From the NCBI RefSeq assembly GCF_014192015.1, contig NZ_JACHXJ010000003.1, positions 857,200-921,199 on the forward strand: DNA of 64,000 nucleotides. Direction: 5' to 3'. Positions 44,447 through 61,995 of the stretch are shown here, one piece after another (the first letter of the stretch is position 1; every line of letters starts with the position of its first letter). Under the pieces are notes generated by a model. It was not told where the DNA came from and searched no databases. It was given only the letters and a program-made list of their open reading frames with translations. The stretch comes from Paenibacillus rhizosphaerae (GTDB lineage: Bacteria; Bacillota; Bacilli; Paenibacillales; Paenibacillaceae). The translations under genes were made by a program, and so were the position numbers.

Positions 44447-46516
44447 TCAGGATACCTTGAACGTATAGACCCCGCTGATGATGGTGAAGGTGTCCCCGTC
44501 TTTCAGCGGATACTCCTTATAGGGCACCATAGGCTCACCATGGAGCCTGGTTCCGTTGCGGGAGCCCAGATCCTTGATCAGGTATCCGCCGTCCTTGCTT
44601 CTGGCCAGCTCGACATGCGCGCGCGAAGTGCCCGTGGAGGCTTCAACGTACTGGGCAACCTCCTCCGACCTGCCGATCACGAAGTGCGGCAGCGTCAGCT
44701 CGATCCGTTCGGAGGGGTGCCCCTGCTCCCCTTCGCGAATCAAATAATAGCCGGGACTGCCGGAGCGATGGTTTTTCCTGCCGGCAGCGTCATTCACAGG
44801 CGCGGATAGAAGTACGGTTGCATGACTTTGTCCGGTGCCGAACATAACCGGTCCTTCTTCCGAACGGACATCGTATTCGGCGCTTCCAACCGATCCAGCA
44901 TGCTCGTTGGCCGCACGTTCAACCCTGGCTGCATGGTCTGCCTCAAGGTGGCTCCACAGACGCTGCCGGATGTCCGAATATTCTTCCCGGCCGGCTGAAG
45001 CTTTGGATTCTTCCCGTCTTCCCCTTCCTTCGCTTCCTTCTCGTCCTTCCAGTACGCCCCCCAACTCGCTCCCCAGTCCGCTCCCCCTATGGTTAGAGCC
45101 TACCGGCAAGAAGCTCGGCTCGCTTGTCCTTTGCCCCCTTCCCCTTAGCTCAATACCTGTTGAGGCTGCAAGTAAATCCTGCGAAAACTTCCACTTCCAA
45201 TCCGGCTCTGCGTCCTCTTTACCGTGATCGTCATCATCGCGATCCTTCCGTCTGCTGCCTTTACCGAACCAGCCGGTCAGCTGCTCCACCTGAAACCGCG
45301 GGGTTCTCTTTCGTGAAGGCGCATGGCGATCATCATCGTCGATTTCACCTGACCCGAAATCCGGGATTTCCCCTTCCACCGCTTGTTGCGCAGAGCGGCC
45401 CAGCTTAAGCTTTCCGGTCCACCCAAGCCAAGCCGCCGCACCAAGCAAAACCGTCAACAGGACACTGATCAGCAATGAGCTGGTCGTGGGTTTCGGCATA
45501 TAAATCATCCGCCAGACGACGGCGGCACACAATAGACAACCCAAAGCAATATAAACCTTTGCACCAGACTTTCCGTTTGCTTCCTGCTCATCGTTTGAAT
45601 CTAAGACATCATCACGATCCGGATTCCGGTTCCACTGGTCAAACGCCTCCTGAAGCCCGCCCAATCCCGGAACGGAGTCCCTATCGGGACCCCAGCGGTC
45701 TGCCTGGTTCAGCGGCATGGACCGCAGCCGTTTCCCCTCAGCTGACCTGGTATTTGTTCTGGCTGTATGAAAAGGGACCACGCTGCTCTCTGCAGAATCC
45801 TCTGCTTCTCTTGTTCCTTTTCCCGGCACACGACCGCCGCCTGGTAACCCTTGCCTGTCAGCCTCCTGAATATGATCTTGAAACCCTTCTAACGGCTGGT
45901 CGCCTCCCGAATGGCCGGCATATCCTTGTCCAACATCCTCCTCAGCGGTTAATAGCTCGATCAGGAGCTTTTTAAAGCCAGAGACCGAAAAGTCCTCGCC
46001 CCCGGTGAATTGAAGCAGTCTTTGAACACCGTTTCCCTTCAGCTCCTGTACCGTGGCCATCAGCCGCGTGACTAATTCCTTCAGTCGGATTCGCAGCGGC
46101 CTGTCCTGAAACGGCTCCTCCAGTGGAACATACGTAAAATAAAGCGTTCCCGAGTGCAGGGACCCGTCAACGAAGATGAAATCCTCGTCCAGCACATACT
46201 TATCCGGCTGCAGCATGTAAGACTTGCTGTCTTCCAGCGTCCCGGCCACCTGGCACAAAAGCCCGTAATAATCCGGCATGCTGAGCTTCTCTCCCCTGAG
46301 GATATGGGATAGCATCTTCTTGCCTGTAATGTCATACTGGAGCGTTACCCGGAGATCCATCTCCTTCAGGCGCAGCGGAAGAAATCTGGCGATCCGGGAG
46401 GCCGAAATCATAGATAATTCTATATTGTTTAATTCGTCGGGACTGTACCCTTCAGCAGGGCCAATGACCATAAAGGTTCCGTCATGATGAATAAAGTCAC
46501 GCGTCAGGGACTCCAA
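44447..46516 (-). CDS. FHA-domain membrane protein of the Tad locus
   Basis: 689 residues. An N-terminal DUF6382-like domain (about 1-200), a long polar linker, two membrane helices near 325-370 (YIALGCLLCAAVVWRMIY and SLLISVLLTVLLGAAAWLG), a second charged disordered linker rich in Arg, Glu and Gly, and a C-terminal FHA domain (VIGRSEEVAQYVEA, SRAHVEL, DLGSRNGTRLHG). FHA domains bind phosphothreonine, so pilus function may be tied to Ser/Thr kinase signalling (inference). TTG start at 46516 with GGAGGTG 9 bases upstream. Last gene of the Tad operon. Confidence 0.82.
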   Translation of the reverse strand: MESLTRDFIHHDGTFMVIGPAEGYSPDELNNIELSMISASRIARFLPLRLKEMDLRVTLQYDITGKKMLSHILRGEKLSMPDYYGLLCQVAGTLEDSKSYMLQPDKYVLDEDFIFVDGSLHSGTLYFTYVPLEEPFQDRPLRIRLKELVTRLMATVQELKGNGVQRLLQFTGGEDFSVSGFKKLLIELLTAEEDVGQGYAGHSGGDQPLEGFQDHIQEADRQGLPGGGRVPGKGTREAEDSAESSVVPFHTARTNTRSAEGKRLRSMPLNQADRWGPDRDSVPGLGGLQEAFDQWNRNPDRDDVLDSNDEQEANGKSGAKVYIALGCLLCAAVVWRMIYMPKPTTSSLLISVLLTVLLGAAAWLGWTGKLKLGRSAQQAVEGEIPDFGSGEIDDDDRHAPSRKRTPRFQVEQLTGWFGKGSRRKDRDDDDHGKEDAEPDWKWKFSQDLLAASTGIELRGRGQRTSEPSFLPVGSNHRGSGLGSELGGVLEGREGSEGRGRREESKASAGREEYSDIRQRLWSHLEADHAARVERAANEHAGSVGSAEYDVRSEEGPVMFGTGQSHATVLLSAPVNDAAGRKNHRSGSPGYYLIREGEQGHPSERIELTLPHFVIGRSEEVAQYVEASTGTSRAHVELARSKDGGYLIKDLGSRNGTRLHGEPMVPYKEYPLKDGDTFTIISGVYTFKVS

Positions 46517-46573
46517 AACGATGTTCACCTCCAAAAACATCTCTAGGAACTTATCTTTTCGTAAACTTGAGGA

Positions 46574-47080
46574 TCAGAAATACATGCACACGCATATAAA
46601 GCCAGGCAGCACGGCAAGCATAAACGGAAAATGAAGCTGCTCTTGCCGGTTCCCCCTCAAGCTGGTCAGACTCCTTAATACAAAAAATCCGGAAAGGCTA
46701 CCGACAGCCTGGCGCAGCCTCTTCATTGCGTCCCTTCTCCACAAGGAGATCAAGAGCCCGATGATTCCCGCAAAGATGACCGAATAGACCACGCACTGAA
46801 CCGCAAACAGAACGCCCATCCAGGCGCCGATCCCGGCAAACAGCTTCACATCTCCCGCTCCGACTGCCCCCATCCAGTACATGACGAGCAAAATCAGGAA
46901 TCCGGCGGCCATCCCTTTCCCTGCAAACGCGAGCCCGGACCAGCCGTTCCAAATTCCGTGGAAGGTTATCCCCGCGATGATTGCGCTGAAATTAAGCTTA
47001 TTCGGAATCTTCATCGTCCGGATGTCGGTCACAAAAGCAGCGGCAATCAGCACTGCACATCCAAATATGGCTGGATTCAC
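46574..47080 (-). CDS. tadV: A24 prepilin peptidase (TadV/CpaA)
   Basis: 168-residue membrane aspartic peptidase. The two catalytic aspartates are D19 (VTDIRTMKIPN) and D77 in the GxGD motif (GAGDVKLF). The short form without the methyltransferase domain is typical of Tad systems. It should process the Flp pilin and the TadE-like proteins of this operon. Confidence 0.92.
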   Translation of the reverse strand: MNPAIFGCAVLIAAAFVTDIRTMKIPNKLNFSAIIAGITFHGIWNGWSGLAFAGKGMAAGFLILLVMYWMGAVGAGDVKLFAGIGAWMGVLFAVQCVVYSVIFAGIIGLLISLWRRDAMKRLRQAVGSLSGFFVLRSLTSLRGNRQEQLHFPFMLAVLPGFICVCMYF

Positions 47081-47142
47081 GGTACAACTTCCCCCTTTCC
47101 CCTTCTTTTTATTGAAGTTAATACATCCCCCGCGGTTCTGAG

Positions 47143-48174
47143 CTATCCCTTTACGACGGTAAACATGACTTCCAGCCGCTGGCCGTCCGAAGTCGTGATG
47201 ACGAAGGGCCAGGTCCCGGGTGTCGTATTAGGTCCGACCCACCATTCCCACTCGATGGTTCCGTCCGCGTCAGCCTGCTTTTCTCCCAAGTATTTGGCGG
47301 TGCTTTGACCGCTTTTATAAAACACGGATAAATTCGCCGATCCGTTTGGAGCGATCTTGGCACGAACCTTGGCCTTTTTGCCGACATATGCGGGATCCGG
47401 TTTGGATAAAATGCTGATGGTATTGTGTCCCTCACCATCCCCTTCACCTTCTCCGGAGCCTTCTTCATCGGTCGCGCCGATCCACAGGCGTTCTTGCGCT
47501 TTGGCCTGGATCACAATCTTCCTATTGATAAAAGGGACCTTCATTGGCAGCTCATAGCTCAGTTCAATGCCAAAGTACGGATCCGTCCTTTTCTTGAGGT
47601 CAGGGATTTGAATATTGGAAACATGAATTCGCTCGTAGCTTAGAAAATGGCTTTGCATCTGTGGCTTCAATATCGGTTTGACCACCGGATCGAGCACCGC
47701 CTCTGCCGTCTGATTTTTTAAATTCTGGAGCGGGGCTTCAGCCCGCCCCACTGCCTCATTCGTCCATTCCTTCAGGGGAGACGGGAGAGCCCCCGTATAT
47801 TGGGAAGCCCATTCGCTCAGCGACAGCTCGGGAACAGACCAGCTCCCGGAGTCACGCTCCTTGGATTCGTCTCCCGTCCCTGCGGATGCTTCCGGCTGAA
47901 TGGCTAAAGCCACCGGATATATATGGGAAGATACCAGCTTGACGGTATCCGAAGCGGTGCTCTGCAGCGCCGTAGAAATGAGTGTCATCTGAACGATATA
48001 AATCAGAAAAATGACGAAGAACAAAAAAACAGGCAGCACCAATGAGGCTTCCAGGACGATGCCGCCCAGCTCCCGCTTCTCCAGCTTCGGAAACGCCTTG
48101 GCGATAACAGAAGCTTTCCCCCAATTCATGCGGTGCAGCCGATCAATAAGCAAAATCCGCCTTTTTCGTAACAT
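47143..48174 (-). CDS. TadE-like pseudopilin with long C-terminal domain
   Basis: 343 residues. N-terminal polar region, then a prepilin-like signature G37|G-I-V-L-E42 followed by a hydrophobic helix (ASLVLPVFLFFVIFLIYIVQ). The extracellular part of about 280 residues includes a helical domain and a C-terminal beta-sandwich (AYVGKKAKVRAKIAPNG to TVVKG) that resembles a carboxypeptidase- or bacterial-Ig-like module. Unusually large for TadE. ATG at 48174 lies inside the end of the previous gene, with AAGGAAA 8 bases upstream. Confidence 0.78.
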   Translation of the reverse strand: MLRKRRILLIDRLHRMNWGKASVIAKAFPKLEKRELGGIVLEASLVLPVFLFFVIFLIYIVQMTLISTALQSTASDTVKLVSSHIYPVALAIQPEASAGTGDESKERDSGSWSVPELSLSEWASQYTGALPSPLKEWTNEAVGRAEAPLQNLKNQTAEAVLDPVVKPILKPQMQSHFLSYERIHVSNIQIPDLKKRTDPYFGIELSYELPMKVPFINRKIVIQAKAQERLWIGATDEEGSGEGEGDGEGHNTISILSKPDPAYVGKKAKVRAKIAPNGSANLSVFYKSGQSTAKYLGEKQADADGTIEWEWWVGPNTTPGTWPFVITTSDGQRLEVMFTVVKG

Positions 48175-50377
48175 AGTAACGGTTTCCTTCCACATTATCC
48201 GGACTGCCTCCGGCATAACCCGCCATTTTGATCACGCCGGGCAGGAACCACAGGCTCATTCCGATCCGGACTTCGCCAGACGTATACGTGGCGCGTTCTG
48301 CGGGATTAATTCCCGTATTCAGACGAATCAGAGCCAGCATTCTGGACATTTTCTTCTCATTGTCGCTGTGGATCAGCAGAAACAATCTCAAGTAGTCGCG
48401 GTAAGTCATTTGAAGCTTGACGTAGCTGGACAGCTCTACGGATCCATCTTTGCAGAGCTTCACCATGTCTGCCATAGCCATCTCTACTCCGTACAGCAGA
48501 GCTGCTGCGAGCACGAGCAGCGGATTTCCCAGTTTGCTGTTCTTCACCAGCCCCTCCATGGTCCGAACCGCCAGCCGTGCCGCAAAAATTTCGGCATAGG
48601 CCGCTGACACATTGCCCACCGGGTTATGGAGGCCGTACACGATATACTCCAGCTCTTGATGGTTAACGCTCATCTCATCGGCAACCGCATCCCCAAGCCG
48701 GCTTCCCGGGCTTGCCGCCGCCTCTTTCAGCAGTCCAAGATCAAAATGGGTAAAATACAGCGCTGCATATTCATTCTGGAACAGCTCATCCTTGATGCCC
48801 GACACCATCCCCGCCATGGATCCATACACTGAGTCCGTCTGCTTCATGGCCGATTTGCCCGCATCATAGGGGTCATGGTCCAGATCGGTCCCTTTATACT
48901 CGCTGCCTGGGTCTTTCTTATTAAAGGTCAAGCTATCGTCGTAATACTGCTGAAGCTCCTGGTATTCCTCCTTGTGCTGCTTCACTTTCTGGTCCAGCTT
49001 ATTAATGCTTTCCAAAATGCCTGCCGCTTCGGACAGCTTGGCCTTACTCTGTTTCTCTTTTTCTTTCCTTTCCTTGTCGGATTCCCGATGCTCCTGCAGC
49101 TGACCCGCCACCCGGTCAAGCTTATTCCCGCTGCCTGAAAGAGCGTAATCCTGGGCATAACGGTCAGCGGCGCGTACTCCCTGGATCACCTCATTTTTCA
49201 TGCGCCCACTGCTTCCTTGAACACCGGAAGACTCGGCAAGGGAAGATAAAAGGGTGGATAATCGGTTGTTAACGGCACTGTAATCTTGTTTTTGGGTCTC
49301 AATTACATCATTCAATTCCTGAAGCAGACGGTCGGACAGAAGCAGTTGGTCTATGCCGTCCCGGATGCCATGAATCGCCGCTGGATCGCTTCCGGACGCT
49401 TCCGGTGCCGCACCCGGAATCACGGCGCTCCCAACTTGATCGTAACCTTCGGTCCCGCCGCGCTCCCCGGCTTCTGCAATCACTTCCTCCATCTTATCGT
49501 TGATGCTTCGGGCCTCCTCCCAATACTCCCGGGCATTCTGGAGTTCCTTCGCGTGGCTCTTGGCCGCCGAGGACTGGATGCCCTGCAGGCGGGAGACGAC
49601 CTTTCCTGAGCTGCGGTTATACTCCCGGATTTCCGAGCTGTACTGCTCCTCTTCGTCTTCACCGCGGTTAGCATCCTCATTGACCTTCTCCACGTAATCC
49701 TCATATTGTGAGGCGATATCGGCCGCGGTGACCACTTCCGAAGAACCGAGCAATTGGTCCGGTATCGCCCCTCCGGCAGGGCTCATGATCATATCCGGAG
49801 CATCCTTCAGGCTTTGACCGGCCTTCCTCTGGGACGCCAGCATCTGATCGAGGGCCTCCTCACGCTTGTCATACAGCTTCTGCAGCTTGCTCAGCACATC
49901 CACCGTATCCGAAGCTTCCTTCATGGATTCGGACAGCGGCTTGAATCGGCTGACGAGCTCCAGAGAAAAGTCGATGGGCGCTTTATACTTCATCTCCTCG
50001 CTGACTTCCCTATTAAAAATGTCATACTCCCCCAGCATCCGTTCCATCTTGAGCGATGAGGTGTCCAGCTGAAGCGGAAGCAGATCAAACCGATCGCTGC
50101 GGTCACCCTTGTCCATCATGCTGTTAAGCACGCCTGCCATAATCTGATCGCCGCTCGTGGTGCCGTATGCAAAGAGTCCGTACCTTTCCTGCAGTTCAGG
50201 GTCGTACGACGACATGACCGACCGGACAGCCGCGCGGACCAACCGCTCGCTCTGCGCTTTCATCGCCGCAATCCGGGCGTAATCGATAAATAGCGCGACA
50301 AACGCAAAAATCAATGCCAAAACTCCAATAAGAAAGATGGATACCGAACCACTTTCCGAGCGTCTCATGCCGAACAC
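48143..50377 (-). CDS. TadG-like protein (DUF5702)
   Basis: 744 residues. N-terminal hydrophobic helix (VSIFLIGVLALIFAFVALFI) after RRSESGS, then a very long Glu/Lys/Gln-rich extracellular part predicted to form coiled coils, closing with a helical domain ending in GSPDNVEGNRYYVTKKADFAY. This fits the TadG/DUF5702 proteins that replace the classical TadG in Firmicutes. It lacks the +5 glutamate of the other pseudopilins. GTG at 50377 is chosen since AGGAGG is 8 bases upstream. Confidence 0.8.
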   Translation of the reverse strand: MFGMRRSESGSVSIFLIGVLALIFAFVALFIDYARIAAMKAQSERLVRAAVRSVMSSYDPELQERYGLFAYGTTSGDQIMAGVLNSMMDKGDRSDRFDLLPLQLDTSSLKMERMLGEYDIFNREVSEEMKYKAPIDFSLELVSRFKPLSESMKEASDTVDVLSKLQKLYDKREEALDQMLASQRKAGQSLKDAPDMIMSPAGGAIPDQLLGSSEVVTAADIASQYEDYVEKVNEDANRGEDEEEQYSSEIREYNRSSGKVVSRLQGIQSSAAKSHAKELQNAREYWEEARSINDKMEEVIAEAGERGGTEGYDQVGSAVIPGAAPEASGSDPAAIHGIRDGIDQLLLSDRLLQELNDVIETQKQDYSAVNNRLSTLLSSLAESSGVQGSSGRMKNEVIQGVRAADRYAQDYALSGSGNKLDRVAGQLQEHRESDKERKEKEKQSKAKLSEAAGILESINKLDQKVKQHKEEYQELQQYYDDSLTFNKKDPGSEYKGTDLDHDPYDAGKSAMKQTDSVYGSMAGMVSGIKDELFQNEYAALYFTHFDLGLLKEAAASPGSRLGDAVADEMSVNHQELEYIVYGLHNPVGNVSAAYAEIFAARLAVRTMEGLVKNSKLGNPLLVLAAALLYGVEMAMADMVKLCKDGSVELSSYVKLQMTYRDYLRLFLLIHSDNEKKMSRMLALIRLNTGINPAERATYTSGEVRIGMSLWFLPGVIKMAGYAGGSPDNVEGNRYYVTKKADFAY

Positions 50378-50400
50378 CCGCAATTCCTCCTTTTCGGGTC

Positions 50401-51090
50401 CTACGGCTGGCTTCCGGAAGCTTGGAGCTGCTGCAGCACCCCAGCCGCGCTGCCTCGATCCATCCCTTCGCCAGCATCATGCTTCTTGAACTTCGAGCCG
50501 TAGTATCTCATCAGATGGATGCTGCGGATAAATTCTACCGGATCCACGACTAATGAGCTGCCGGAGGTTTGAAGCTCGTTCCCTCCGCCGTCCAGCATGG
50601 CATCGAGCGGCCGAAGGGAGATCATTTGGTGCAGGCTGGCGGTCACCTTCCGTTGCAGCAGAGCATTCTGATAAGTCATATCCCCCTGCATGCCTGCCGG
50701 AATAGCCGAGCCGGTTTTGCTCAGCTTGATCGACGTCAGTGCTCCTTGCGCGGAAGATGTACTTGGAACGAGTACCGTCTGCGAGTTTTCGGCCCCTGCC
50801 CACCCAAATAACGCACCAAGCCATTGATCATCTGTCAATCGCCAATACAGCGGATCGTATTGATTGACCGGCACCGAGCCGTCCAGCGCTTCTTTATGGC
50901 TGTTATCCCAGCTGTAGGCCGTACGCTCCGCGGCTGCGGACGCCGCTTGATGCAGCATGCTCTGCTGATAGATATACAGGGACAGAAACAGCAGAATCAT
51001 CGTCGTGAACAGAACAACCGGCATGACGAGGGAGGCTTCCAGTGTAAAGCTTCCCTCGCATTCTTTTAACCTAGCTCGTAAATTCTTCAC
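50401..51090 (-). CDS. TadE-like minor pilin
   Basis: 229 residues. Processing signature G13|S-F-T-L-E18, then the hydrophobic helix ASLVMPVVLFTTMILLFLSL and an extracellular domain. Glutamate at +5 and the LEASLVMP core are diagnostic of TadE. Start is GTG, overlapping the Flp gene by 20 bases with only a weak ribosome site, so translation is probably coupled. Confidence 0.86.
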   Translation of the reverse strand: MKNLRARLKECEGSFTLEASLVMPVVLFTTMILLFLSLYIYQQSMLHQAASAAAERTAYSWDNSHKEALDGSVPVNQYDPLYWRLTDDQWLGALFGWAGAENSQTVLVPSTSSAQGALTSIKLSKTGSAIPAGMQGDMTYQNALLQRKVTASLHQMISLRPLDAMLDGGGNELQTSGSSLVVDPVEFIRSIHLMRYYGSKFKKHDAGEGMDRGSAAGVLQQLQASGSQP

Positions 51091-51259
51091 TTTTCTTGTT
51101 AACGTTAGCCAGCAGCTTGTTGATCAGCTCCATAATTTGTTTCTTAAATAGAAGCGCTATAATGAGGATTACGACGATAATCAGCAGCATTTCGAGCGTT
51201 CCCAGCCCCTCCTCATCTTTCCATAATTTCATGCCACTTCGTCTTATCATTGTCAGCAT
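51071..51259 (-). CDS. flp: Flp-type pilin
   Basis: 62-residue prepilin with basic leader, cleavage motif G18|L-G-T-L-E23 and the hydrophobic helix MLLIIVVILIIALLF followed by a short charged tail. This is the Flp1-type major subunit of Tad pili, found in the expected place beside TadC and TadE. AGGAGGGG lies just before the ATG. Confidence 0.88.
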   Translation of the reverse strand: MLTMIRRSGMKLWKDEEGLGTLEMLLIIVVILIIALLFKKQIMELINKLLANVNKKSEEFTS

Positions 51260-51270
51260 TTATACCCCTC

Positions 51271-52143
51271 CTACATGTTCATCATCATAAAAGCCGGTGT
51301 GCCCACCAGCACAATCACGATCATAAAAATGACCATCATTGGAAAAACGAGCTTTGACGAAGCCTGCTCTCCCCGTGTCCGGGTAATGGCCTTGCGCTTC
51401 TCCCATAATCCCCGGGACAAGTCGTTCAGAGCCATGGCAAAGTCACTGCCCCCTCGCCGCAAATTTAGAAGTACGGCCGTCGTAAACGCAGACACCTCCT
51501 GCACGGCACAGCGTTTGCTAAAGTTTTCAAACGACTGCTGAAAGGAATATCCGCCTTCCAGATCACCGATCATCCGGATTAGTTCCTTATAAAGCGGATG
51601 ATCCCTTTGGGAATCCTTCTGACGTGCGCACCGCGTGATGGCCTTCTGTACCGTCTCGCCGGCTCCGACGAGCAGGACGATCTTGTTCAGCAGCTCGGCC
51701 AGCTCGATCGTAATATCTTGGTCCCGTTTATCGACCTTTGTGTGCAGGTCCTTAATGATAGCGGCTGGCAAAAGGATGGCCAGCAGTCCTCCAATAACAA
51801 GCCCCGTGTTTCCCCCGGCGGCAAGCGTCAGCAGGCAGCCCAGCATCAGCACTAGCCAGCTGTAACACAGCATCTCTCCGGCATACAGGAGCGTCATCTC
51901 CACGCTGTGCCGCTGCCCATAAATCTTCTGGATCGAGCGCTGGAGCCTGAAGAAGAAGAGCGGAAAACGCGCAGTCAGCTTGTACCGGTCGATGATGCAC
52001 AGCATGGGCCGCATCAAGGCTCTCAGCCGGATCCCTTCCATCGGCAATGTCATCAACCGCTTATACTTGTCGCCGCAGTGCTGGTTCTGCACCACCCAAC
52101 CTCCCGCCAGCAGAGCCAGCATCACGGCAGCCAATAACTTCAT
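51271..52143 (-). CDS. tadC: Tad inner-membrane protein TadC (type II secretion F domain)
   Basis: 290 residues with hydrophobic helices near the N-terminus, middle and C-terminus and the T2SSF domain (ELLNKIVLLVGAGETVQKAI, GYSFQQSFENFSKRCAVQEV). It forms the platform with TadB. GGGGTG lies before the ATG. Confidence 0.9.
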   Translation of the reverse strand: MKLLAAVMLALLAGGWVVQNQHCGDKYKRLMTLPMEGIRLRALMRPMLCIIDRYKLTARFPLFFFRLQRSIQKIYGQRHSVEMTLLYAGEMLCYSWLVLMLGCLLTLAAGGNTGLVIGGLLAILLPAAIIKDLHTKVDKRDQDITIELAELLNKIVLLVGAGETVQKAITRCARQKDSQRDHPLYKELIRMIGDLEGGYSFQQSFENFSKRCAVQEVSAFTTAVLLNLRRGGSDFAMALNDLSRGLWEKRKAITRTRGEQASSKLVFPMMVIFMIVIVLVGTPAFMMMNM

Positions 52144-52156
52144 GACTTCACCCCGT

Positions 52157-53029
52157 TCACACCTTGATATTCATCATTTTCATAATCCATACCAGGCAGC
52201 CGGCCAGACCCGCCAACGCAGCTGTCGAGATCAAGATGCCCATCCCCGTGTACAGCGGCTTCATATAGTCTCCGGCCGTAAAATTCATAAACATCAGCAT
52301 CAGGACGGGCGCAGCCAACAGCGCTCTGGATTCAAATTTCTTCTGGGCAATCATGACCGAGATCTCCTGTTTGATATCCAGCTTCTCGCCAATCACAGTT
52401 GAGGTGTGCCGGACAACCTCGACAAGGTCCCCGCCCGTGCGTTTACACGTCGTAAACACATCCGCAAAATTCGTAATATCCTCCATTGCCGCACGGCGGC
52501 TGAAGTCATTCAGCGCATCTTCGACCGGTTCGCCGTATTCCATCCGTGCGCAGATAATGCCCAGCTCGGTAATCAGGTCATTCTCCGCATCCGGGTCGAG
52601 CATTCGCAGGTCCTGAATGGCCTCCCTAAATCCGTTCTCTACCGATTTGCCCGCAGACAGGGAGGAGGAAAGCGAATACAGCGCCTGCTTAAAATGAAGA
52701 TTCATCGCGGTCCTCCGGCGCTCCAGAAGATGAGCCCTCCAAAACCGTGGAACGATCAACCCGCCGGATGCCATGATGATAGCTATAAGCCAATGATGAT
52801 AGAACAAATAGCCGATTCCGAAGCAGAACAAGCCCCCAATAGCAATGCATGCCGTACGCTGGAACCCGTTCAGATCATAAGTCCGGTAATCCGGAAGCTT
52901 CTTTCCCATGCCCTCTGGAGGGGAGGAGCCGTTCATGCTCCGTCTCATGAGGACCCCGCCTGATTTGGTGGGAGCACCGGCCTCCCGCCGCTTTCCCTTG
53001 CTCTCGGCCCCCTGCTGTTCACGTAACAT
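52157..53029 (-). CDS. tadB: Tad inner-membrane protein TadB (type II secretion F domain)
   Basis: 290 residues with the GspF-type fold: LYSLSSSLSAGKSVENGFREA and FADVFTTCKRTGGDLVEVV. A basic disordered N-terminus precedes the first membrane helices. ATG at 53029 has GGGAGG 8 bases upstream; a TTG ten codons earlier has none. Forms the pilus assembly platform with TadC. Confidence 0.9.
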   Translation of the reverse strand: MLREQQGAESKGKRREAGAPTKSGGVLMRRSMNGSSPPEGMGKKLPDYRTYDLNGFQRTACIAIGGLFCFGIGYLFYHHWLIAIIMASGGLIVPRFWRAHLLERRRTAMNLHFKQALYSLSSSLSAGKSVENGFREAIQDLRMLDPDAENDLITELGIICARMEYGEPVEDALNDFSRRAAMEDITNFADVFTTCKRTGGDLVEVVRHTSTVIGEKLDIKQEISVMIAQKKFESRALLAAPVLMLMFMNFTAGDYMKPLYTGMGILISTAALAGLAGCLVWIMKMMNIKV

Positions 53030-53142
53030 CGCTTTTACCTCCCTGGTGAGACTACTCAACTAATCATTCAGGCTTATTTTTTTGATGCTGAGACAAGCAG
53101 CTGGCGACCCTAAAATGTTCATAACCTGAGACTAAATCTGCC

Positions 53143-54366
53143 TCACCTCTTTGCAGCGATCCCCGCAGCCTGAAGCTTGCCGCCATGAATCAGCCTGTTT
53201 CCCGTCGGCTCCAGCTCCCCTTCGACCCTTCCCTCCTTCTCCCCCGTCTCCCGAAAACGGAACAGCGGATTCAGAACCACCTCGCCGTTCTCCAGCCCGG
53301 CCACCTCGCTGATTTCAGTGACCTTCCGTGAGCGGTCGCGCATCCTGGACAGATGGACAAAAATATCGATCGCCGAGCTGATCTGCTGGCGTACGACCGG
53401 CACGGGCAGATCCGCTCCGCTCAGCACCATCGTCTCCAGCCGGCTGATCATATCGCGCGTGCTGTTCGCATGGCCGGTCGATAAGCTTCCATCATGGCCG
53501 GTGTTCATTGCCTGCAGCATATCGAGCGCCTCGCTCCCCCGGACCTCGCCGACCACAATCCGGTTGGGACGCATCCGAAGGGAGGAGCGGATCAGATCCC
53601 GTATGGCGATTTCCCCTCTTCCCTCGGTGTTGGCGTTACGGGTCTCCAGAGCGACCAGATTGGGGACGGTGACAATCTGAAGTTCAGCCGAATCCTCAAT
53701 CGTAATCACCCGTTCATCCGGCGGGATGAATTGCGACAGGGCGTTGAGGAACGTCGTTTTGCCGGAGCCTGTCCCGCCGCTGATAAAGATGTTGTATTTC
53801 CCCACCACAAGCTGCTGCAGAAACTCGGCCGCCTCCTGACTCAGTGCTCTCCGGAAGATCAAGTCCTGCATCGTCATCGGCGATTCGGGGAACTTCCGGA
53901 TCGTCATTGTGGGCCCCTTCAGCGCAACCGGCGGCAGGACGATGTTGACCCGCGAGCCGTCTTTCAGCCTGGCGTCCACGATCGGCGAAGACTCGTTGAC
54001 GACGCGGTTCACGCCGGCGACAATCGACTGGATGATGTCTTCAAGCCTCGACCTCGACTCGAACTTCAGCGGCAGCCGGGACACCACGCCGTCCTGCTCT
54101 ATAAAAATATCCTCGTGGCTGTTGATCATAATTTCGGTAATCGCAGGATTATCCACTAAAGGCTGCAAAATGTCGAGCCCGCGGAATGAATCGAAGATCC
54201 GCCGGATCAGGCTTCGCTTCTCCTGCGCGGTCAGCTCGCGAAGCTCCTGCCTCCTGAGCACCGTCCGCTCGATATACTGCATCAGCTCCCGGTTGCCTAG
54301 CGCGGAAGTCACGTCCAGTCCGGACCGGATTTCTTGGCGAAGCTCGCGGAACAACTCCTCATCCAT
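53143..54366 (-). CDS. tadA: Tad assembly ATPase TadA/CpaF
   Basis: 407 residues, secretion/assembly ATPase. Walker A GGTGSGKT (197-204), Asp box TIEDSAEL, Walker B GEVRGSEALDMLQAMNTGHDG, His box STGHANS. N-terminal domain with DNPAITEIMIN. It drives pilin polymerisation. Its start overlaps the tadZ stop by eight bases. Confidence 0.95.
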   Translation of the reverse strand: MDEELFRELRQEIRSGLDVTSALGNRELMQYIERTVLRRQELRELTAQEKRSLIRRIFDSFRGLDILQPLVDNPAITEIMINSHEDIFIEQDGVVSRLPLKFESRSRLEDIIQSIVAGVNRVVNESSPIVDARLKDGSRVNIVLPPVALKGPTMTIRKFPESPMTMQDLIFRRALSQEAAEFLQQLVVGKYNIFISGGTGSGKTTFLNALSQFIPPDERVITIEDSAELQIVTVPNLVALETRNANTEGRGEIAIRDLIRSSLRMRPNRIVVGEVRGSEALDMLQAMNTGHDGSLSTGHANSTRDMISRLETMVLSGADLPVPVVRQQISSAIDIFVHLSRMRDRSRKVTEISEVAGLENGEVVLNPLFRFRETGEKEGRVEGELEPTGNRLIHGGKLQAAGIAAKR

Positions 54367-55519
54367 ATCCCCTCACCCCGGAATCACTGACAAATGAATC
54401 CCCCAGAAGGGACTTGCACAGCTTGAGGATATCCCGCTGGTAGATCGGCGAGCTCAGCAGCAGCTCTTCGTTGCTGTTCTGCTTCCAGGAAGGGATATAC
54501 GGCAGAACGCCGTCCACCTCCGGTATGCACGGGGGCAGCGGATTGGTCAGCTGCCCGGTGAACCGGTTGACTACGTACCGGCTCTTCCGGGCCAGCTCGG
54601 CGAACAGCTCCGGCTGGCTCCGCTCCATAAACCCGAACCACTGCCCGTTTTTGTACAGGTTGGCGATATCGTCCAGCATCAGCCAGACCAGGTGGCGGCA
54701 TCCTTCCAGGACGGCGGCCAGGCGTTCGTTCGGTACGGAATCCGTGTCGGCGATCACCACGTCGTACCGGCCGCTGGCCGCGATGCTCTGCAGCAGCTTA
54801 CGCGTATCGGCTTTACCCAATTGAACCAGCTCTTTCAAATTGGTGACGGGTTTGAACCAATCCGCACGAATTCCCGGATGATGGACGGTATACGGCTCCG
54901 GAGATACCAAAGTCTGCGCATGCTTCTCCTCCTGGGCCGCTTTCAGCACATACAGCATTCCGGGCAGCCCCTCGGCACTCTCCGCACCGCCTCCCGGTCT
55001 GGGAAAGATTCCGCTGCTGTTCACAGTTTCCAGGTTCAGATAGAATACGGACAGGCCGGCGGCCCCCAGCTGTTTGGCCATATTTACAGCAGCGGTCGTC
55101 TTCCCGCTCCCGCCCACGACGGAGACGAAGCCGATCGTCACGGCCTCTCCCTCCGCCATCGGCAGCGTACGACGCTGACCTTCCCTCCGGCATAATCCGA
55201 GAATGGACGCCATCAGCTCCGGAAGGGGCTGATATTTGGGGAGAACCGGTCCTTGTATTGAGGCTGCCTCTCCATGTCCGAGCAAAATCCAGTTTGGCGT
55301 ATCGCCGTTCTTCCGGGCAAGCCAGGGTTCTAGAAAAGCAGCCTCCCCAACGACGGCGTCGGGCAGCTCCTCACCGTCCAAATACTTCATAAAAGTGTCC
55401 AACTTAGTGAACCCGGATATGTGCAGCTTGTCCCCAAACTCGCTGTTGTGAACATAGTGCAGAATACCCTCCAGATACTGCGCCTCCTTGACCGCAAGCG
55501 TAATTCGGTATGGTACCAT
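54359..55519 (-). CDS. tadZ: TadZ/CpaE-like ATPase
   Basis: 386 residues. N-terminal receiver-like domain (TLAVKEAQYLEGILHYVHN) and a C-terminal MinD/ParA-type ATPase with Walker A VGGSGKTTAAVN and VVIADTDSV. TadZ/CpaE proteins place the pilus apparatus at a cell pole. First gene of the operon. AGGAGG lies 11 bases before the ATG, 30 bases after a terminator-like hairpin. Confidence 0.87.
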   Translation of the reverse strand: MVPYRITLAVKEAQYLEGILHYVHNSEFGDKLHISGFTKLDTFMKYLDGEELPDAVVGEAAFLEPWLARKNGDTPNWILLGHGEAASIQGPVLPKYQPLPELMASILGLCRREGQRRTLPMAEGEAVTIGFVSVVGGSGKTTAAVNMAKQLGAAGLSVFYLNLETVNSSGIFPRPGGGAESAEGLPGMLYVLKAAQEEKHAQTLVSPEPYTVHHPGIRADWFKPVTNLKELVQLGKADTRKLLQSIAASGRYDVVIADTDSVPNERLAAVLEGCRHLVWLMLDDIANLYKNGQWFGFMERSQPELFAELARKSRYVVNRFTGQLTNPLPPCIPEVDGVLPYIPSWKQNSNEELLLSSPIYQRDILKLCKSLLGDSFVSDSGVRGYG

Positions 55520-59295: not shown

Positions 59296-59913
59296 TCAGG
59301 ACTTGCCAAGCTCACTCAAGGCCAGGTTCAGCTTCAGCACATTGACCCGCTTCTCGCCGAATACGCCGAGGTCCCGGCCCTCCGTGTACCGCTCGACGAG
59401 AAGGTTCAGCTCATCGACCGAAACGCCGCGAAGCTTGCTGATCCGCGGTACCTGGGCTTTCGCTGATTCGGGCGTAATATGGGGATCAAGCCCGGAGCCC
59501 GAGTTGGTGATCAGGTCCACCGGAAGCTCGCTCACCGGCACGTCCGGGTTGTTCTTTTGCCAATCCGCGATCGAGGCTTGAACCCGCTTCAGCAGCTCGG
59601 GATTGGATGGGGCATAGTTGTTCGATCCCGAACCTTCTGCCTGGTAATCAATGCTGGAAACCCGCCCCTGGAAGAAGGAAGGATCCGTAAAGGACTGGCC
59701 GATCAGCTCGGAACCCACGACCCTCCCCGTGCTGTCCTTTACCATGCTGCCGTCCGCCTGGCTCGGGAAGATTAGCTGAGCCAAGCCGGTGCACACCAGC
59801 GGGTACGCAATCCCGCATAGGACGATCAGCACCAGACTCGTGCGCAGCGCGACACCCCACAAGGAACCGTTCCACTTTTCTTCGCCGACTGCCGTCGTCA
59901 CCGTCGTTTTCAT
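59296..59913 (-). CDS. kdpC: K+-transporting ATPase subunit KdpC
   Basis: 205 residues with one membrane helix (about 27-48, VLIVLCGIAYPLVCTGLAQL) and an external domain with GSELIGQSFTDPSFFQGR and the C-terminal NSGSGLDPHITPESAKAQV region. It supports KdpB and KdpA in high-affinity potassium uptake. Last gene of the kdp cluster, with a terminator behind it; 35 bases from kdpB. Confidence 0.96.
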   Translation of the reverse strand: MKTTVTTAVGEEKWNGSLWGVALRTSLVLIVLCGIAYPLVCTGLAQLIFPSQADGSMVKDSTGRVVGSELIGQSFTDPSFFQGRVSSIDYQAEGSGSNNYAPSNPELLKRVQASIADWQKNNPDVPVSELPVDLITNSGSGLDPHITPESAKAQVPRISKLRGVSVDELNLLVERYTEGRDLGVFGEKRVNVLKLNLALSELGKS

Positions 59914-59948
59914 ATCGTATCATCCTTTTTTCAAAATCTTTCGTTTGA

Positions 59949-61979
59949 TCAAATCCACAAATGAACCGCCAGATCAATCAGCTTGATGCCGATAAAAGGC
60001 GCAATCACGCCGCCAAGGCCAAAGATCAGCAGGTTGCGGCTGAGCAGGCGCGACGAGCTTATCGGCTTGTAGGCCACTCCTTTCATCGCCAGCGGGATCA
60101 GCAGCGGGATAATGACCGCATTGAAAATCAAGGCGCTCAAGATCGCCGAGAGTGGTGAGCCGAGATTCATGACGTTCAACACGTTCATTTCCGGGATGGC
60201 AGCCATGAACATCGCGGGGATGATGGCAAAATATTTGGCCACATCGTTTGCGATGCTGAACGTGGTGAGCGCGCCGCGGGTCATCAGCAGCTGCTTGCCG
60301 ATGGCCACCACCTCGATGATCTTCGTCGGATCGGAATCGAGGTCGACCATGTTCGCCGCTTCCTTCGCGGCCGCCGTGCCGCTGTTCATCGCCAGCCCGA
60401 CATCGGCCTGTGCCAAGGCCGGCGCGTCGTTCGTGCCGTCGCCGGTCATGGCGACCAGCTTGCCTTCGGCCTGCTCGCGGCGGATGACCGCGATTTTGTC
60501 CTCCGGCTTGCTCTCGGCGATAAAGTCGTCGACGCCTGCCTCCCGGGCGATCGTAGCCGCAGTCAGCGGGTTATCGCCGGTACACATGATCGTCTTGATG
60601 CCCATCTGCCGGAGCTGGTCAAAGCGTTCCTTCATGCCGGGTTTGACCGTATCCTTCAAATGAATCAACCCGTAAATGCGATTGTCCACGGCGATTGCCA
60701 GCGGCGTCCCGCCTTCCGACGCGATTTTATCGGATTCCACATCCAGATCTGCCGGAATACTTCCGCCTTGGGCCAGCACCCAGCGCTTCACCGCGTCCAC
60801 CGCCCCTTTCCGGACATGACGTCCGTCGGCAAGGTCGATGCCGCTCATCCGCGTCTCCGCCCTGAACTCGATAAACTCTCCGGCCGCTGCCGCCCCCGGA
60901 TGTACCTCCATCGACTGCTTCTTCACCAGCTCCAGCACGGAGCGGCCTTCCGGCGTCTCGTCTTTAACCGAGCTGACGGCCGCCCAATAGGACGTTTCCG
61001 TGTAATCCGCGCCCCCTACCGGAATGAACTGGCTCGCCATCCGGTTACCGAAGGTAATCGTACCCGTTTTATCCAAAATGATCGTGTTGATGTCGCCCGA
61101 AGCCTCGACGGCTTTCCCCGACATGGCCAGCACGTTGAACTGGGTGACCCGGTCCATGCCTGCGATGCCGATGGCAGACAGCAGCCCGCCGATCGTCGTC
61201 GGGATGAGACACACGAGCAGGGAAATCAGCACCGGGATATCCAGCGAAATGCCGAAATGCTTGGCAATTGGCGCCAGCGTAACGACCACGATCAGAAAAA
61301 TTAGCGTCAGTGTTGTAAGCAGCGTGTTAAGCGCAATCTCATTAGGCGTCTTCTGCCGCGCGGCTCCTTCAACCAGCGAAATCATCCGGTCCAGGAACGA
61401 TTCGCCCGGGTCGCTGTTGATCATCACATTGATCTGATCGCTTACGACGCGGGTTCCCCCGGTGACCGAGCTGAAATCGCCGCCGGCTTCTTTGATCACC
61501 GGTGCCGATTCGCCGGTAATCGCCGATTCGTCCACCGACGCCAGGCCTTCGACGACTTCCCCGTCACCCGGGATCATCTCGCCTTGGGAGACGATGACGA
61601 CATCGCCTTTACGCAGCTCGGCCGAACTGACGACCTTGACTTCGCCGCCCACGATTTTGTTCGCCGTCATTTCTTTTTTGCTCTTCTTGAGCGTATCGGC
61701 TTGGGCCTTGCCCCGCCCTTCCGCCAGCGCCTCCGCGAAATTCGCGAACAGGACCGTGAAGAGCAGGATCAGAAACACGGTCAGATTAAACCCTATCCGT
61801 TCCCCGGTATGAAAATACGAAGGAAAAAGGACCATCAGCAGCACCACGAAGGTGCCCACCTCTACGACGAACATGACCGGATTTTTCATCATTACGGCCG
61901 GGTTCAGTTTCATCAAGCTGTCTTTTAGCGCCTGTTTGGCAATGCCGCCAGACAGCAGGCTTTTGCGTTGTCCGCTCAT
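59949..61979 (-). CDS. kdpB: K+-transporting P-type ATPase subunit KdpB
   Basis: 676 residues. P-type ATPase with TGES (155-158), phosphorylated D303 in [17 protein letters not shown] hinge and an HPGA-like region in the nucleotide domain ([13 protein letters not shown]). It energises the KdpFABC pump. Start ATG at 61979 has GAGGTG 9 bases upstream, while the in-frame GTG four codons earlier overlaps it. 16 bases behind kdpA. Confidence 0.97.
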
Positions 61980-61995
61980 GACTTGTTCCACCTCT

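What the first reader, a model, noticed from the sequence alone, without database searches (positions are those of the whole stretch)
46574..51259. Three Tad proteins share one prepilin cleavage signature, the TadG-like protein does not
G|LGTLE in the Flp pilin, G|SFTLE in TadE and G|GIVLE in the 343-residue protein all have Glu at +5, directly before a hydrophobic helix. The 744-residue TadG-like protein has G|SVSIF without Glu. So the peptidase at 46574 probably makes one pilin and two minor pilins, and the large protein is anchored instead.
Basis: partly seen in the sequence, partly recalled or inferred. Interest (0 to 1): 0.52.

Follow-up and report, generated by a model that had tools for sequence, protein, structure and literature searches.

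The report
Tad pilus tip proteins in Paenibacillus

Summary
Observation correct: Flp (G|LGTLE), TadE (G|SFTLE) and the 343-residue protein (G|GIVLE) have Gly(-1)/Glu(+5); the 744-residue protein (G|SVSIF) lacks Glu(+5). The inference that the large protein is therefore uncleaved and merely anchored is not supported. The peptidase cuts after Gly/Ala(-1), and in the large protein Gly(-1) is kept in 99 of 99 aligned sequences, while +5 is never Glu and is aromatic in 92. It is the only invariant column before +43. Distant relatives mostly show the same. A Glu5-less minor pilin, ComGG of Streptococcus sanguinis, is cleaved and modelled as tip cap (PMC10790768, passages); TadG-type proteins of Myxococcus and Caulobacter have predicted sites and are modelled at Tad tips (PMC12075869, PMC12607857, passages). 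Best reading: TadV, the only A24 peptidase found in the genome, matures four proteins: the Flp pilin and a TadE1-TadG-TadE2 tip complex capped by the Glu5-less TadG. Cleavage and position are inferred, not shown. The large protein belongs to Pfam DUF5702, a name no held paper contains. New member of a known kind, modest interest.

The parts
46574..47080 (-). TadV-type prepilin peptidase, 168 aa, A24 domain without the N-terminal methylase half
   Evidence: Pfam PF01478 E 4.8e-17; only A24 match in the genome at E<=0.001; both catalytic Asp in 99 rows holding the columns, of 102
47143..48174 (-). TadE2: 343-aa TadE-like minor prepilin with long alpha-1 helix and C-terminal Ig-like domain
   Evidence: TadE PF07811 E 0.028, under the curated cut-off; iterated profiles of TadE1 and TadE2 gather the same number of hits, 199 in 99 loci each; model helix 39-92 starts just after the predicted cleavage site
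48049..48066 (-). TadE2 cleavage signature G|GIVLE
   Evidence: sequence; Gly(-1) 96/100, Glu(+5) 99/100 in the window plus relatives
47146..47433 (-). TadE2 C-terminal Ig-like beta-sandwich (residues 248-343)
   Evidence: VIA-align best Z 11.5 over 93 residues, rmsd 2.6
48143..50377 (-). TadG-like / DUF5702 protein, 744 aa, GTG start
   Evidence: Pfam PF18960 E 1e-7; N-terminus matches Pfam Tad PF13400 proteins, hhalign probability 90%, E 1.7e-6
50333..50350 (-). TadG-like predicted cleavage signature G|SVSIF, no Glu(+5)
   Evidence: Gly(-1) 99/99, +5 F54 Y35 W3 other 7, Glu 0; all four Gly codons used, 22/33/29/15
48428..50026 (-). mostly helical region of the TadG-like protein (residues 118-650) lying between predicted beta-strands
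   Evidence: AlphaFold2 model, mean pLDDT 81.9
50401..51090 (-). TadE1 minor prepilin, 229 aa
   Evidence: Pfam PF07811 E 2.5e-8
51037..51054 (-). TadE1 cleavage signature G|SFTLE
   Evidence: Gly(-1) 97/98, Glu(+5) 97/98
51071..51259 (-). Flp-like major prepilin, 62 aa
   Evidence: Pfam Flp1_like PF16982 E 3.3e-17
51191..51208 (-). Flp cleavage signature G|LGTLE, Met rather than Tyr at +6
   Evidence: Gly(-1) 100/101, Glu(+5) 101/101; +6 is I40 M38 L12 V11
51271..52143 (-). TadC platform protein
   Evidence: T2SSF PF00482 E 1.3e-10
52157..53059 (-). TadB platform protein
   Evidence: T2SSF PF00482 E 4e-8
53143..54366 (-). TadA/CpaF ATPase
   Evidence: T2SSE E 4.4e-54; TadA-family model TIGR03819 E 1e-86, 291 bits, under its cut-off of 373
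54359..55519 (-). TadZ/CpaE-like protein
   Evidence: weak CbiA 9.2e-5 and Actinobacterial CpaE model TIGR03815 3.2e-4, both under cut-off; position in the operon
44447..46540 (-). DUF6382 + FHA protein at the end of the operon
   Evidence: PF19909 E 3e-22, PF00498 E 1.5e-11; hits in 97 of 101 loci

Best explanation
This is a Tad (type IVc) pilus operon of a Paenibacillus. TadV cuts after Gly(-1) in four prepilins: the Flp major pilin, TadE1, TadE2 and the 744-residue TadG-like (DUF5702) protein. The three Glu5-bearing proteins can dock under a preceding subunit, their Glu5 neutralising the N-terminal amine of the subunit above. The TadG-like protein usually has an aromatic residue at +5 and so cannot make that contact. 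It is most likely the first, capping subunit of a TadG-TadE1-TadE2 tip complex that primes Flp polymerisation and carries a large helical head outward, with TadE2 adding an Ig-like domain. Shown here: motifs, their conservation, gene order, the single peptidase found, profile kinship of the N-terminus to Pfam Tad (TadG) proteins, a predicted continuous helix from about the cut site. Inferred: cleavage, tip position, order within the tip, head function.
For: Gly(-1) 99/99 and Glu(+5) 0/99 in the TadG-like family; a second, organism-named set gives 79/79 Gly and F78/Y1 (species overlap with the first set is likely). Gly(-1) is one of 12 invariant columns among 714 and the only one before +43, with all four Gly codons in use. 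Outside the window's family, the 13 genomes with a DUF5702 match read G (12) or A (1) at -1 and F10/L2/Y1 at +5 (my reading). Of 30 Pfam-Tad loci, 29 show Gly(-1) and no Glu(+5); one was out of register (my reading). TadG proteins on two Rhizobium plasmids and one Arthrobacter plasmid read likewise (assignment as TadG partly mine). The N-terminal profile matches Pfam-Tad proteins with Gly(-1) in register, E 1.7e-6. The model has a helix at 8-57 and long strands at 102-114, 696-708 and 733-743 that bracket the helical region. Order Flp-TadE-TadG-TadE-TadV holds in 94 of 101 loci. Passages: ComGG lacks Glu5, is cleaved and modelled as cap; GspK and PilX lack Glu5; KilN/TadG and CpaL are tip minor-pilin candidates with predicted sites, CpaL consensus G/A-X4-F/E.
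Against: I saw no experiment showing cleavage of a TadG; in the passages seen the sites are predicted. Two reviews list TadG as a cytoplasmic-membrane component rather than a pilin (PMC10191384, PMC6916266). The model's strands have only moderate confidence (block pLDDT 60-79) and their pairing is inferred from secondary structure, not seen. No fold match tests the pilin part: Foldseek gave none at E<=0.001 and VIA-align rows covered mainly 148-433. TadG and TadE2 profiles do not match significantly (E 0.036, probability 1.4%). The Pfam-Tad sample is the best-scoring 30 of a profile that begins at the Gly, so that count is biased. Glu5 does not sort all Tad proteins cleanly: in one Rhizobium leguminosarum plasmid locus the small Flp-like protein (G|DMAQI) and a protein annotated TadE/TadG (G|ALLGT) lack it too. 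A paper on TcpB lists 50 uses of Glu5 (listing only); as I recall, a tip-initiating pilin there has Glu5.
Confidence: 0.7

Rival explanations
1. One reading: TadV cleaves Flp, TadE1 and TadE2 only; the TadG-like protein keeps its N-terminus as a signal anchor and works as a fixed membrane part of the assembly machine.
For: It lacks Glu5; reviews class TadG as a membrane component; the title of Tomich 2006 names only Flp1, TadE and TadF as maturing through TadV (title seen in the reference lists; paper not held).
Against: Gly(-1) 99/99 with no other invariant column before +43 has no evident use in an uncleaved anchor; Glu5-less ComGG is cleaved; A. actinomycetemcomitans TadG is said to be found in pilus preparations (PMC12607857 passage).
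Confidence: 0.15
2. The TadG-like protein is cleaved but does not become the cap: it stays in the membrane as an assembly factor, or sits elsewhere in the tip complex.
For: Cleavage and incorporation are separate steps; its large helical head could act at the membrane or wall; in Caulobacter, cpaL loss has a different phenotype from cpaJ/cpaK loss (PMC12607857).
Against: In T2SS, T4aP and Com systems the processed subunit without Glu5 is placed at the tip; Kil and CpaL models place TadG-type proteins at the tip.
Confidence: 0.13
3. The four motifs are chance or the cluster is decayed.
For: The TadE2 Pfam score is under its cut-off.
Against: Motifs and gene order are conserved across the sampled loci, TadC homologues occur in 289 of 296 genomes of the order, the frames are open.
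Confidence: 0.02

Closest known systems
Tad/Flp pilus locus, 'widespread colonization island' of Paenibacillus polymyxa A18 (PMC6465253, passages)
   Same: Same gene order TadA-TadB-TadC-small protein-TadE-large protein-third protein-TadV-FHA protein.
   Different: There the Flp, TadG-like and TadE2 genes are listed as hypothetical proteins; no signature or tip role is given in the passages seen.
Kil Tad pilus tips of Myxococcus xanthus, KilL/KilM/KilN (PMC12075869, passages)
   Same: Three TadE/F/G-type minor pilins with predicted cleavage sites, the TadG-type one large with an exposed extra domain.
   Different: The KilN4 head is described as a large beta-scaffold with two long helices; here the head is almost wholly helical and the Ig-like domain is on TadE2. 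The main text holds 'glutamate' once, about KilP, and 'Glu5' not at all.
CpaL of Caulobacter crescentus (PMC12607857, passages)
   Same: TadG orthologue with pilin-like module and site of the form G/A-X4-F/E, as in G-SVSI-F here.
   Different: CpaL carries a vWA domain; no vWA family was listed for the window protein at E<=1.
Competence pilus tip complex ComGD-GF-GE-GG, and GspH-J-I-K of the T2SS (PMC10790768 passages)
   Same: One operon-encoded, peptidase-cleaved subunit lacks Glu5 and is placed as cap of the complex.
   Different: Different filament class; sequence kinship was not tested here.

Membership tests
Tad (type IVc) pilus system | TadA-type ATPase, TadB and TadC platform pair, TadV-type short A24 peptidase, Flp-type pilin in one locus | tested here: met
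   the TadA model TIGR03819 matched below its own cut-off, T2SSE above it
Tad (type IVc) pilus system | Flp pilin with Glu+5 and Tyr+6 | tested here: not met
   Glu+5 present, +6 is Met (I/M/L/V in relatives); this is the 'Flp-like' class without Tyr+6 described for Gram-positives (PMC3244431 passages)
TadV prepilin peptidase | A24 domain with both catalytic Asp, no methylase half | tested here: met
   168 aa with A24 at residues 9-109
TadE minor pilins | TadE1: Gly(-1), Glu(+5), hydrophobic helix, TadE profile over cut-off | tested here: met
   (34.3 bits against 22.9)
TadE minor pilins | TadE2: TadE profile over its cut-off | tested here: not met
   15.0 bits against 22.9; 20.7 bits in the genome search; but its iterated profile gathers 199 hits in 99 loci, as TadE1's does, and it has the motif
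TadG / Pfam Tad (PF13400) | PF13400 N-terminal domain over cut-off | tested here: not met
   no match in the own genome at E<=0.001
TadG / Pfam Tad (PF13400) | homologous N-terminal leader-helix region by profile comparison | tested here: met
   hhalign 90%, E 1.7e-6, Gly(-1) and Asp(+22) in register; 15 TadG-like sequences against 11 of the 30 Pfam-Tad loci; in two other genomes PF13400 and DUF5702 fall in one frame (G448, G474)
DUF5702 | PF18960 over cut-off | tested here: met
   31.7 bits against 26.0
Type 4 minor pilin (processed, filament-borne) | cleaved by the prepilin peptidase | not testable with these tools
   needs N-terminal mass spectrometry or blots
Type 4 minor pilin (processed, filament-borne) | pilin fold (long alpha-1 plus beta-sheet) | tested here: inconclusive
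   helix 8-57 and three long strands predicted with moderate confidence; no fold match covers this part
Glu5-less tip cap (GspK/PilX/ComGG type) | peptidase residue kept, Glu5 absent in one subunit of the set | tested here: met
   99/99 Gly, 0/99 Glu; the other three keep Glu or Asp at +5 in every aligned sequence
Glu5-less tip cap (GspK/PilX/ComGG type) | located at the filament tip | not testable with these tools
   needs pilus preparations and labelling

The most novel reading that the evidence does not exclude
The DUF5702 family, named as of unknown function, is the cleaved, Glu5-less capping minor pilin of Gram-positive Tad pili. The rule 'one cleaved subunit per machine lacks Glu5 and caps the tip', described for T2SS, T4aP and Com pili, then extends to Tad pili, with an aromatic residue at +5 as its usual mark in this branch. 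A head of about 500 mostly helical residues set between the strands of a pilin module would be a new kind of tip head.
Probability: 0.5. Interest if true: 0.5.

Novelty: new member of a known kind. Interest (0 to 1): 0.33.

Why it matters
It corrects a plausible but faulty reading rule (no Glu5, therefore no cleavage) and gives a testable job to a family of unknown function that lies in a pilus operon common in this order (TadC homologue in 289 of 296 sampled genomes). This genome shows one prepilin peptidase and no other type 4 filament system by the three profiles tried, so it would be a clean place to test whether TadG is cleaved, a point on which the reviews and the 2025 Tad tip papers differ.

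Tried and rejected
Rejected: Glu5 as cleavage signal. Rejected: chance motifs. Considered and not supported: shared use of TadV with competence pili; no ComGA over cut-off (the only hit is TadA itself; 2 of 14 control genomes were over the cut-off), no N_methyl pilin (8 of 14 controls over the cut-off), no second A24 peptidase (12 of 14 controls).

Led nowhere: structure searches with the TadG-like model. Foldseek gave no PDB match at E<=0.001. VIA-align rows are helical bundles and other helical proteins covering mainly residues 148-433, best Z 14.2 to a designed bundle, within what its own notes describe for helical models. The profile search of PDB sequences gave 20 matches up to E 1, best 2.8e-4 to a designed bundle, the rest mostly helical proteins. 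No pilin-fold hit was listed, and these searches do not test the pilin part well. TadG against TadE2 profiles gave no significant match, though Gly fell on Gly. DUF5702 in papers: 0 held papers. A search for TadG, Glu5 and minor pilin gave 34 papers with at least two of the terms, 20 listed; the two holding all three are the reviews that treat TadG as a membrane part. Supplements were not searched, so a statement in print elsewhere is possible. My first regex count in the named set was off register for Flp and TadG and was replaced by profile columns. A regex reading of the Pfam-Tad loci mostly failed and was replaced by reading at the match position. In one search two TadG codons were misread by one codon; corrected. 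A rough motif count for the TadE2 Ig-like domain (38 of 100) was not relied on. The 30 loci were used only for their coordinates.

Dropped rows: two loci (L110, L123) showed no TadG; two TadG fragments and one TadE1 without the motif region. In the Pfam-Tad set L279 was out of register. On the Arthrobacter plasmid the gene annotated TadG-related is cut by the end of the stretch and its N-terminus was not seen; I read the 490-aa 'pilus assembly protein' as TadG.
Full report
What was checked. The window lies in a 7.55-Mb genome (G000). The closest named relative in the one scan made is Paenibacillus cellulositrophicus, 94% identity over the large protein (records very near the window may be left out there). 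On the minus strand the window holds a Tad operon: TadZ-like, TadA, TadB, TadC, Flp-like pilin, TadE1, a 744-aa protein, a 343-aa protein, TadV, and a DUF6382/FHA protein. The four N-terminal motifs are as reported: G|LGTLE, G|SFTLE, G|GIVLE and G|SVSIF.

Is it more than chance. Of 296 sampled genomes of the order, 289 have a TadC homologue at E<=1e-10; a second search of 64 of these gave places that the first list had cut. I took 100 stretches of about 11 kb from 99 genomes, chosen by hand for spread. In the window plus these 100, the order TadB/C-Flp-TadE-TadG-TadE-TadV-FHA holds exactly in 92 of 101, and 2 more differ only by a second FHA hit. Motif columns by profile alignment: Flp Gly(-1) 100/101, Glu(+5) 101/101; TadE1 97/98 and 97/98; TadE2 96/100 and 99/100; the TadG-like protein Gly(-1) 99/99, Glu(+5) 0/99 (F54, Y35, W3, L2, M2, A1, S1, T1). 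The exceptions at -1 are Ala (5 in all) and one gap; at +5 in the first three they are Asp (2). A second set of 79 named loci gave Gly(-1) 79/79 in all four proteins, Glu(+5) 79, 79 and 75 (+4 Asp), and F78/Y1 in the TadG-like protein; its species probably overlap the first set.

Why the interpretation changes. In the TadG-like alignment, Gly(-1) is one of 12 fully conserved columns among 714 with at least 80 residues and the only one before position +43. Its four codons are all in use (22, 33, 29, 15), so the amino acid and not the DNA is kept. Prepilin peptidases cut at the Gly or Ala before the hydrophobic stretch (PMC3244431 passages); Glu5 pairs with the N-terminal amine of the neighbouring subunit in the filament (PMC10191384 passages). 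In S. sanguinis, ComGG lacks Glu5 but is cleaved by ComC, found in pili and modelled as the cap of the tip complex (PMC10790768 passages); S. pneumoniae ComGG, M. xanthus PilX and GspK also lack Glu5. So the missing Glu5 points to a tip cap rather than to an uncut anchor.

How wide the pattern is. DUF5702 matches occurred in 16 of 299 genomes of the phylum; in the 13 outside the window's family the N-terminus reads G (12) or A (1) at -1 and F (10), L (2) or Y (1) at +5. Pfam Tad (PF13400) matched 150 of 299 genomes; of the 30 loci fetched, the best-scoring ones, 29 show Gly(-1) without Glu(+5) and one was out of register. That sample is biased because the profile starts at the Gly. On plasmids of two Rhizobium and one Arthrobacter, the proteins I read as TadG begin G|YVIAL, G|FLSPI and G|ASLLI, while TadE/TadF-type proteins beside them read G|AVLAE, G|VSLVE, G|LASIE and G|AAAVE. 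Against a clean rule: in the R. leguminosarum locus the small Flp-like protein (G|DMAQI) and a protein annotated TadE/TadG (G|ALLGT) also lack Glu5. PF13400 itself does not reach threshold in the window's genome, but profile comparison links the two N-termini with Gly(-1) and Asp(+22) in register (90%, E 1.7e-6), and in genomes G448 and G474 both families match one frame.

Structure. The TadG-like model (49 sequences, mean pLDDT 81.9, pTM 0.71) has an unbroken helix from residue 8 to 57, then a strand (102-114), about 530 mostly helical residues, and two strands near the C-terminus (696-708, 733-743). Since the long strands have few other partners, I infer that N- and C-terminal strands form one sheet with the helical part as an insertion; confidence there is moderate and coordinates were not inspected. 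The TadE2 model (42 sequences, mean pLDDT 75.4, pTM 0.49) has a helix 39-92 starting just after Gly37, three strands, and a C-terminal Ig-like sandwich (Z 11.5). Searches found no known fold for the TadG head beyond generic helical bundles.

One peptidase for all. The genome shows one A24 peptidase, two TadE-domain places, both in this operon, plus three hits at E 0.66-0.94 that I did not inspect, no N_methyl pilin and no ComGA over the cut-off. If the profiles missed nothing, the four proteins of this operon are the whole substrate list of TadV.

Known context. P. polymyxa A18 has the same locus with Flp, the large protein and TadE2 listed as hypothetical (PMC6465253 passages). Herrou et al. 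2025 propose that TadEFG-type minor pilins form Tad tips generally (PMC12075869 passages), and Charrouf et al. 2025 propose a tip minor pilin role for CpaL with the site G/A-X4-F/E (PMC12607857 passages). The 2019 and 2023 reviews list TadG as a membrane part. What is added here is the count for a Gram-positive order, the link of DUF5702 to TadG, and the Gly-kept/Glu-lost contrast.

Verdict. Observation confirmed; interpretation half right. Four substrates rather than three is the better reading, at 0.7.

Noticed in passing
window 47146-47433: TadE2 ends in an Ig-like domain (Z up to 11.5). TadE2 lengths from the Gly vary among relatives (quartiles 211 and 307), so the domain is probably absent in part of the order.
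   Followed up: partly
window 44447-46540: A DUF6382 + FHA protein follows tadV; hits in 97 of 101 loci, so a phosphothreonine-reading partner of the pilus is likely but unexplained.
   Followed up: partly
whole genome G000: No ComGA over cut-off, no N_methyl pilin and no second A24 peptidase were found, so the Tad pilus may be the only type 4 filament here.
   Followed up: yes
window 51191-51208: The Flp pilin has Met, and relatives I/M/L/V, at +6 instead of the Tyr of classical Flp pilins.
   Followed up: yes
window 48143-48174, 51071-51090, 54359-54366: Gene overlaps at TadG/TadE2, Flp/TadE1 and TadZ/TadA suggest translational coupling.
   Followed up: no
window 48146-48148: The TadG-like protein keeps a C-terminal Tyr in all 93 sequences that hold that column, and invariant Glu, Gly, Asn, Pro, Tyr and Arg positions between residues 536 and 679, unexplained.
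   Followed up: no
L145, L115: In these relatives the TadG-like frame is found in two pieces, possibly frameshifts or sequencing errors.
   Followed up: no
L265 11103-11306 and 9723-10520: In a Rhizobium leguminosarum plasmid Tad locus the small Flp-like protein and a TadE/TadG-annotated protein lack Glu5.
   Followed up: no
window 59296-61991: ORFs upstream of the operon look like KdpC and KdpB by reading the sequence; recalled, not searched.
   Followed up: no
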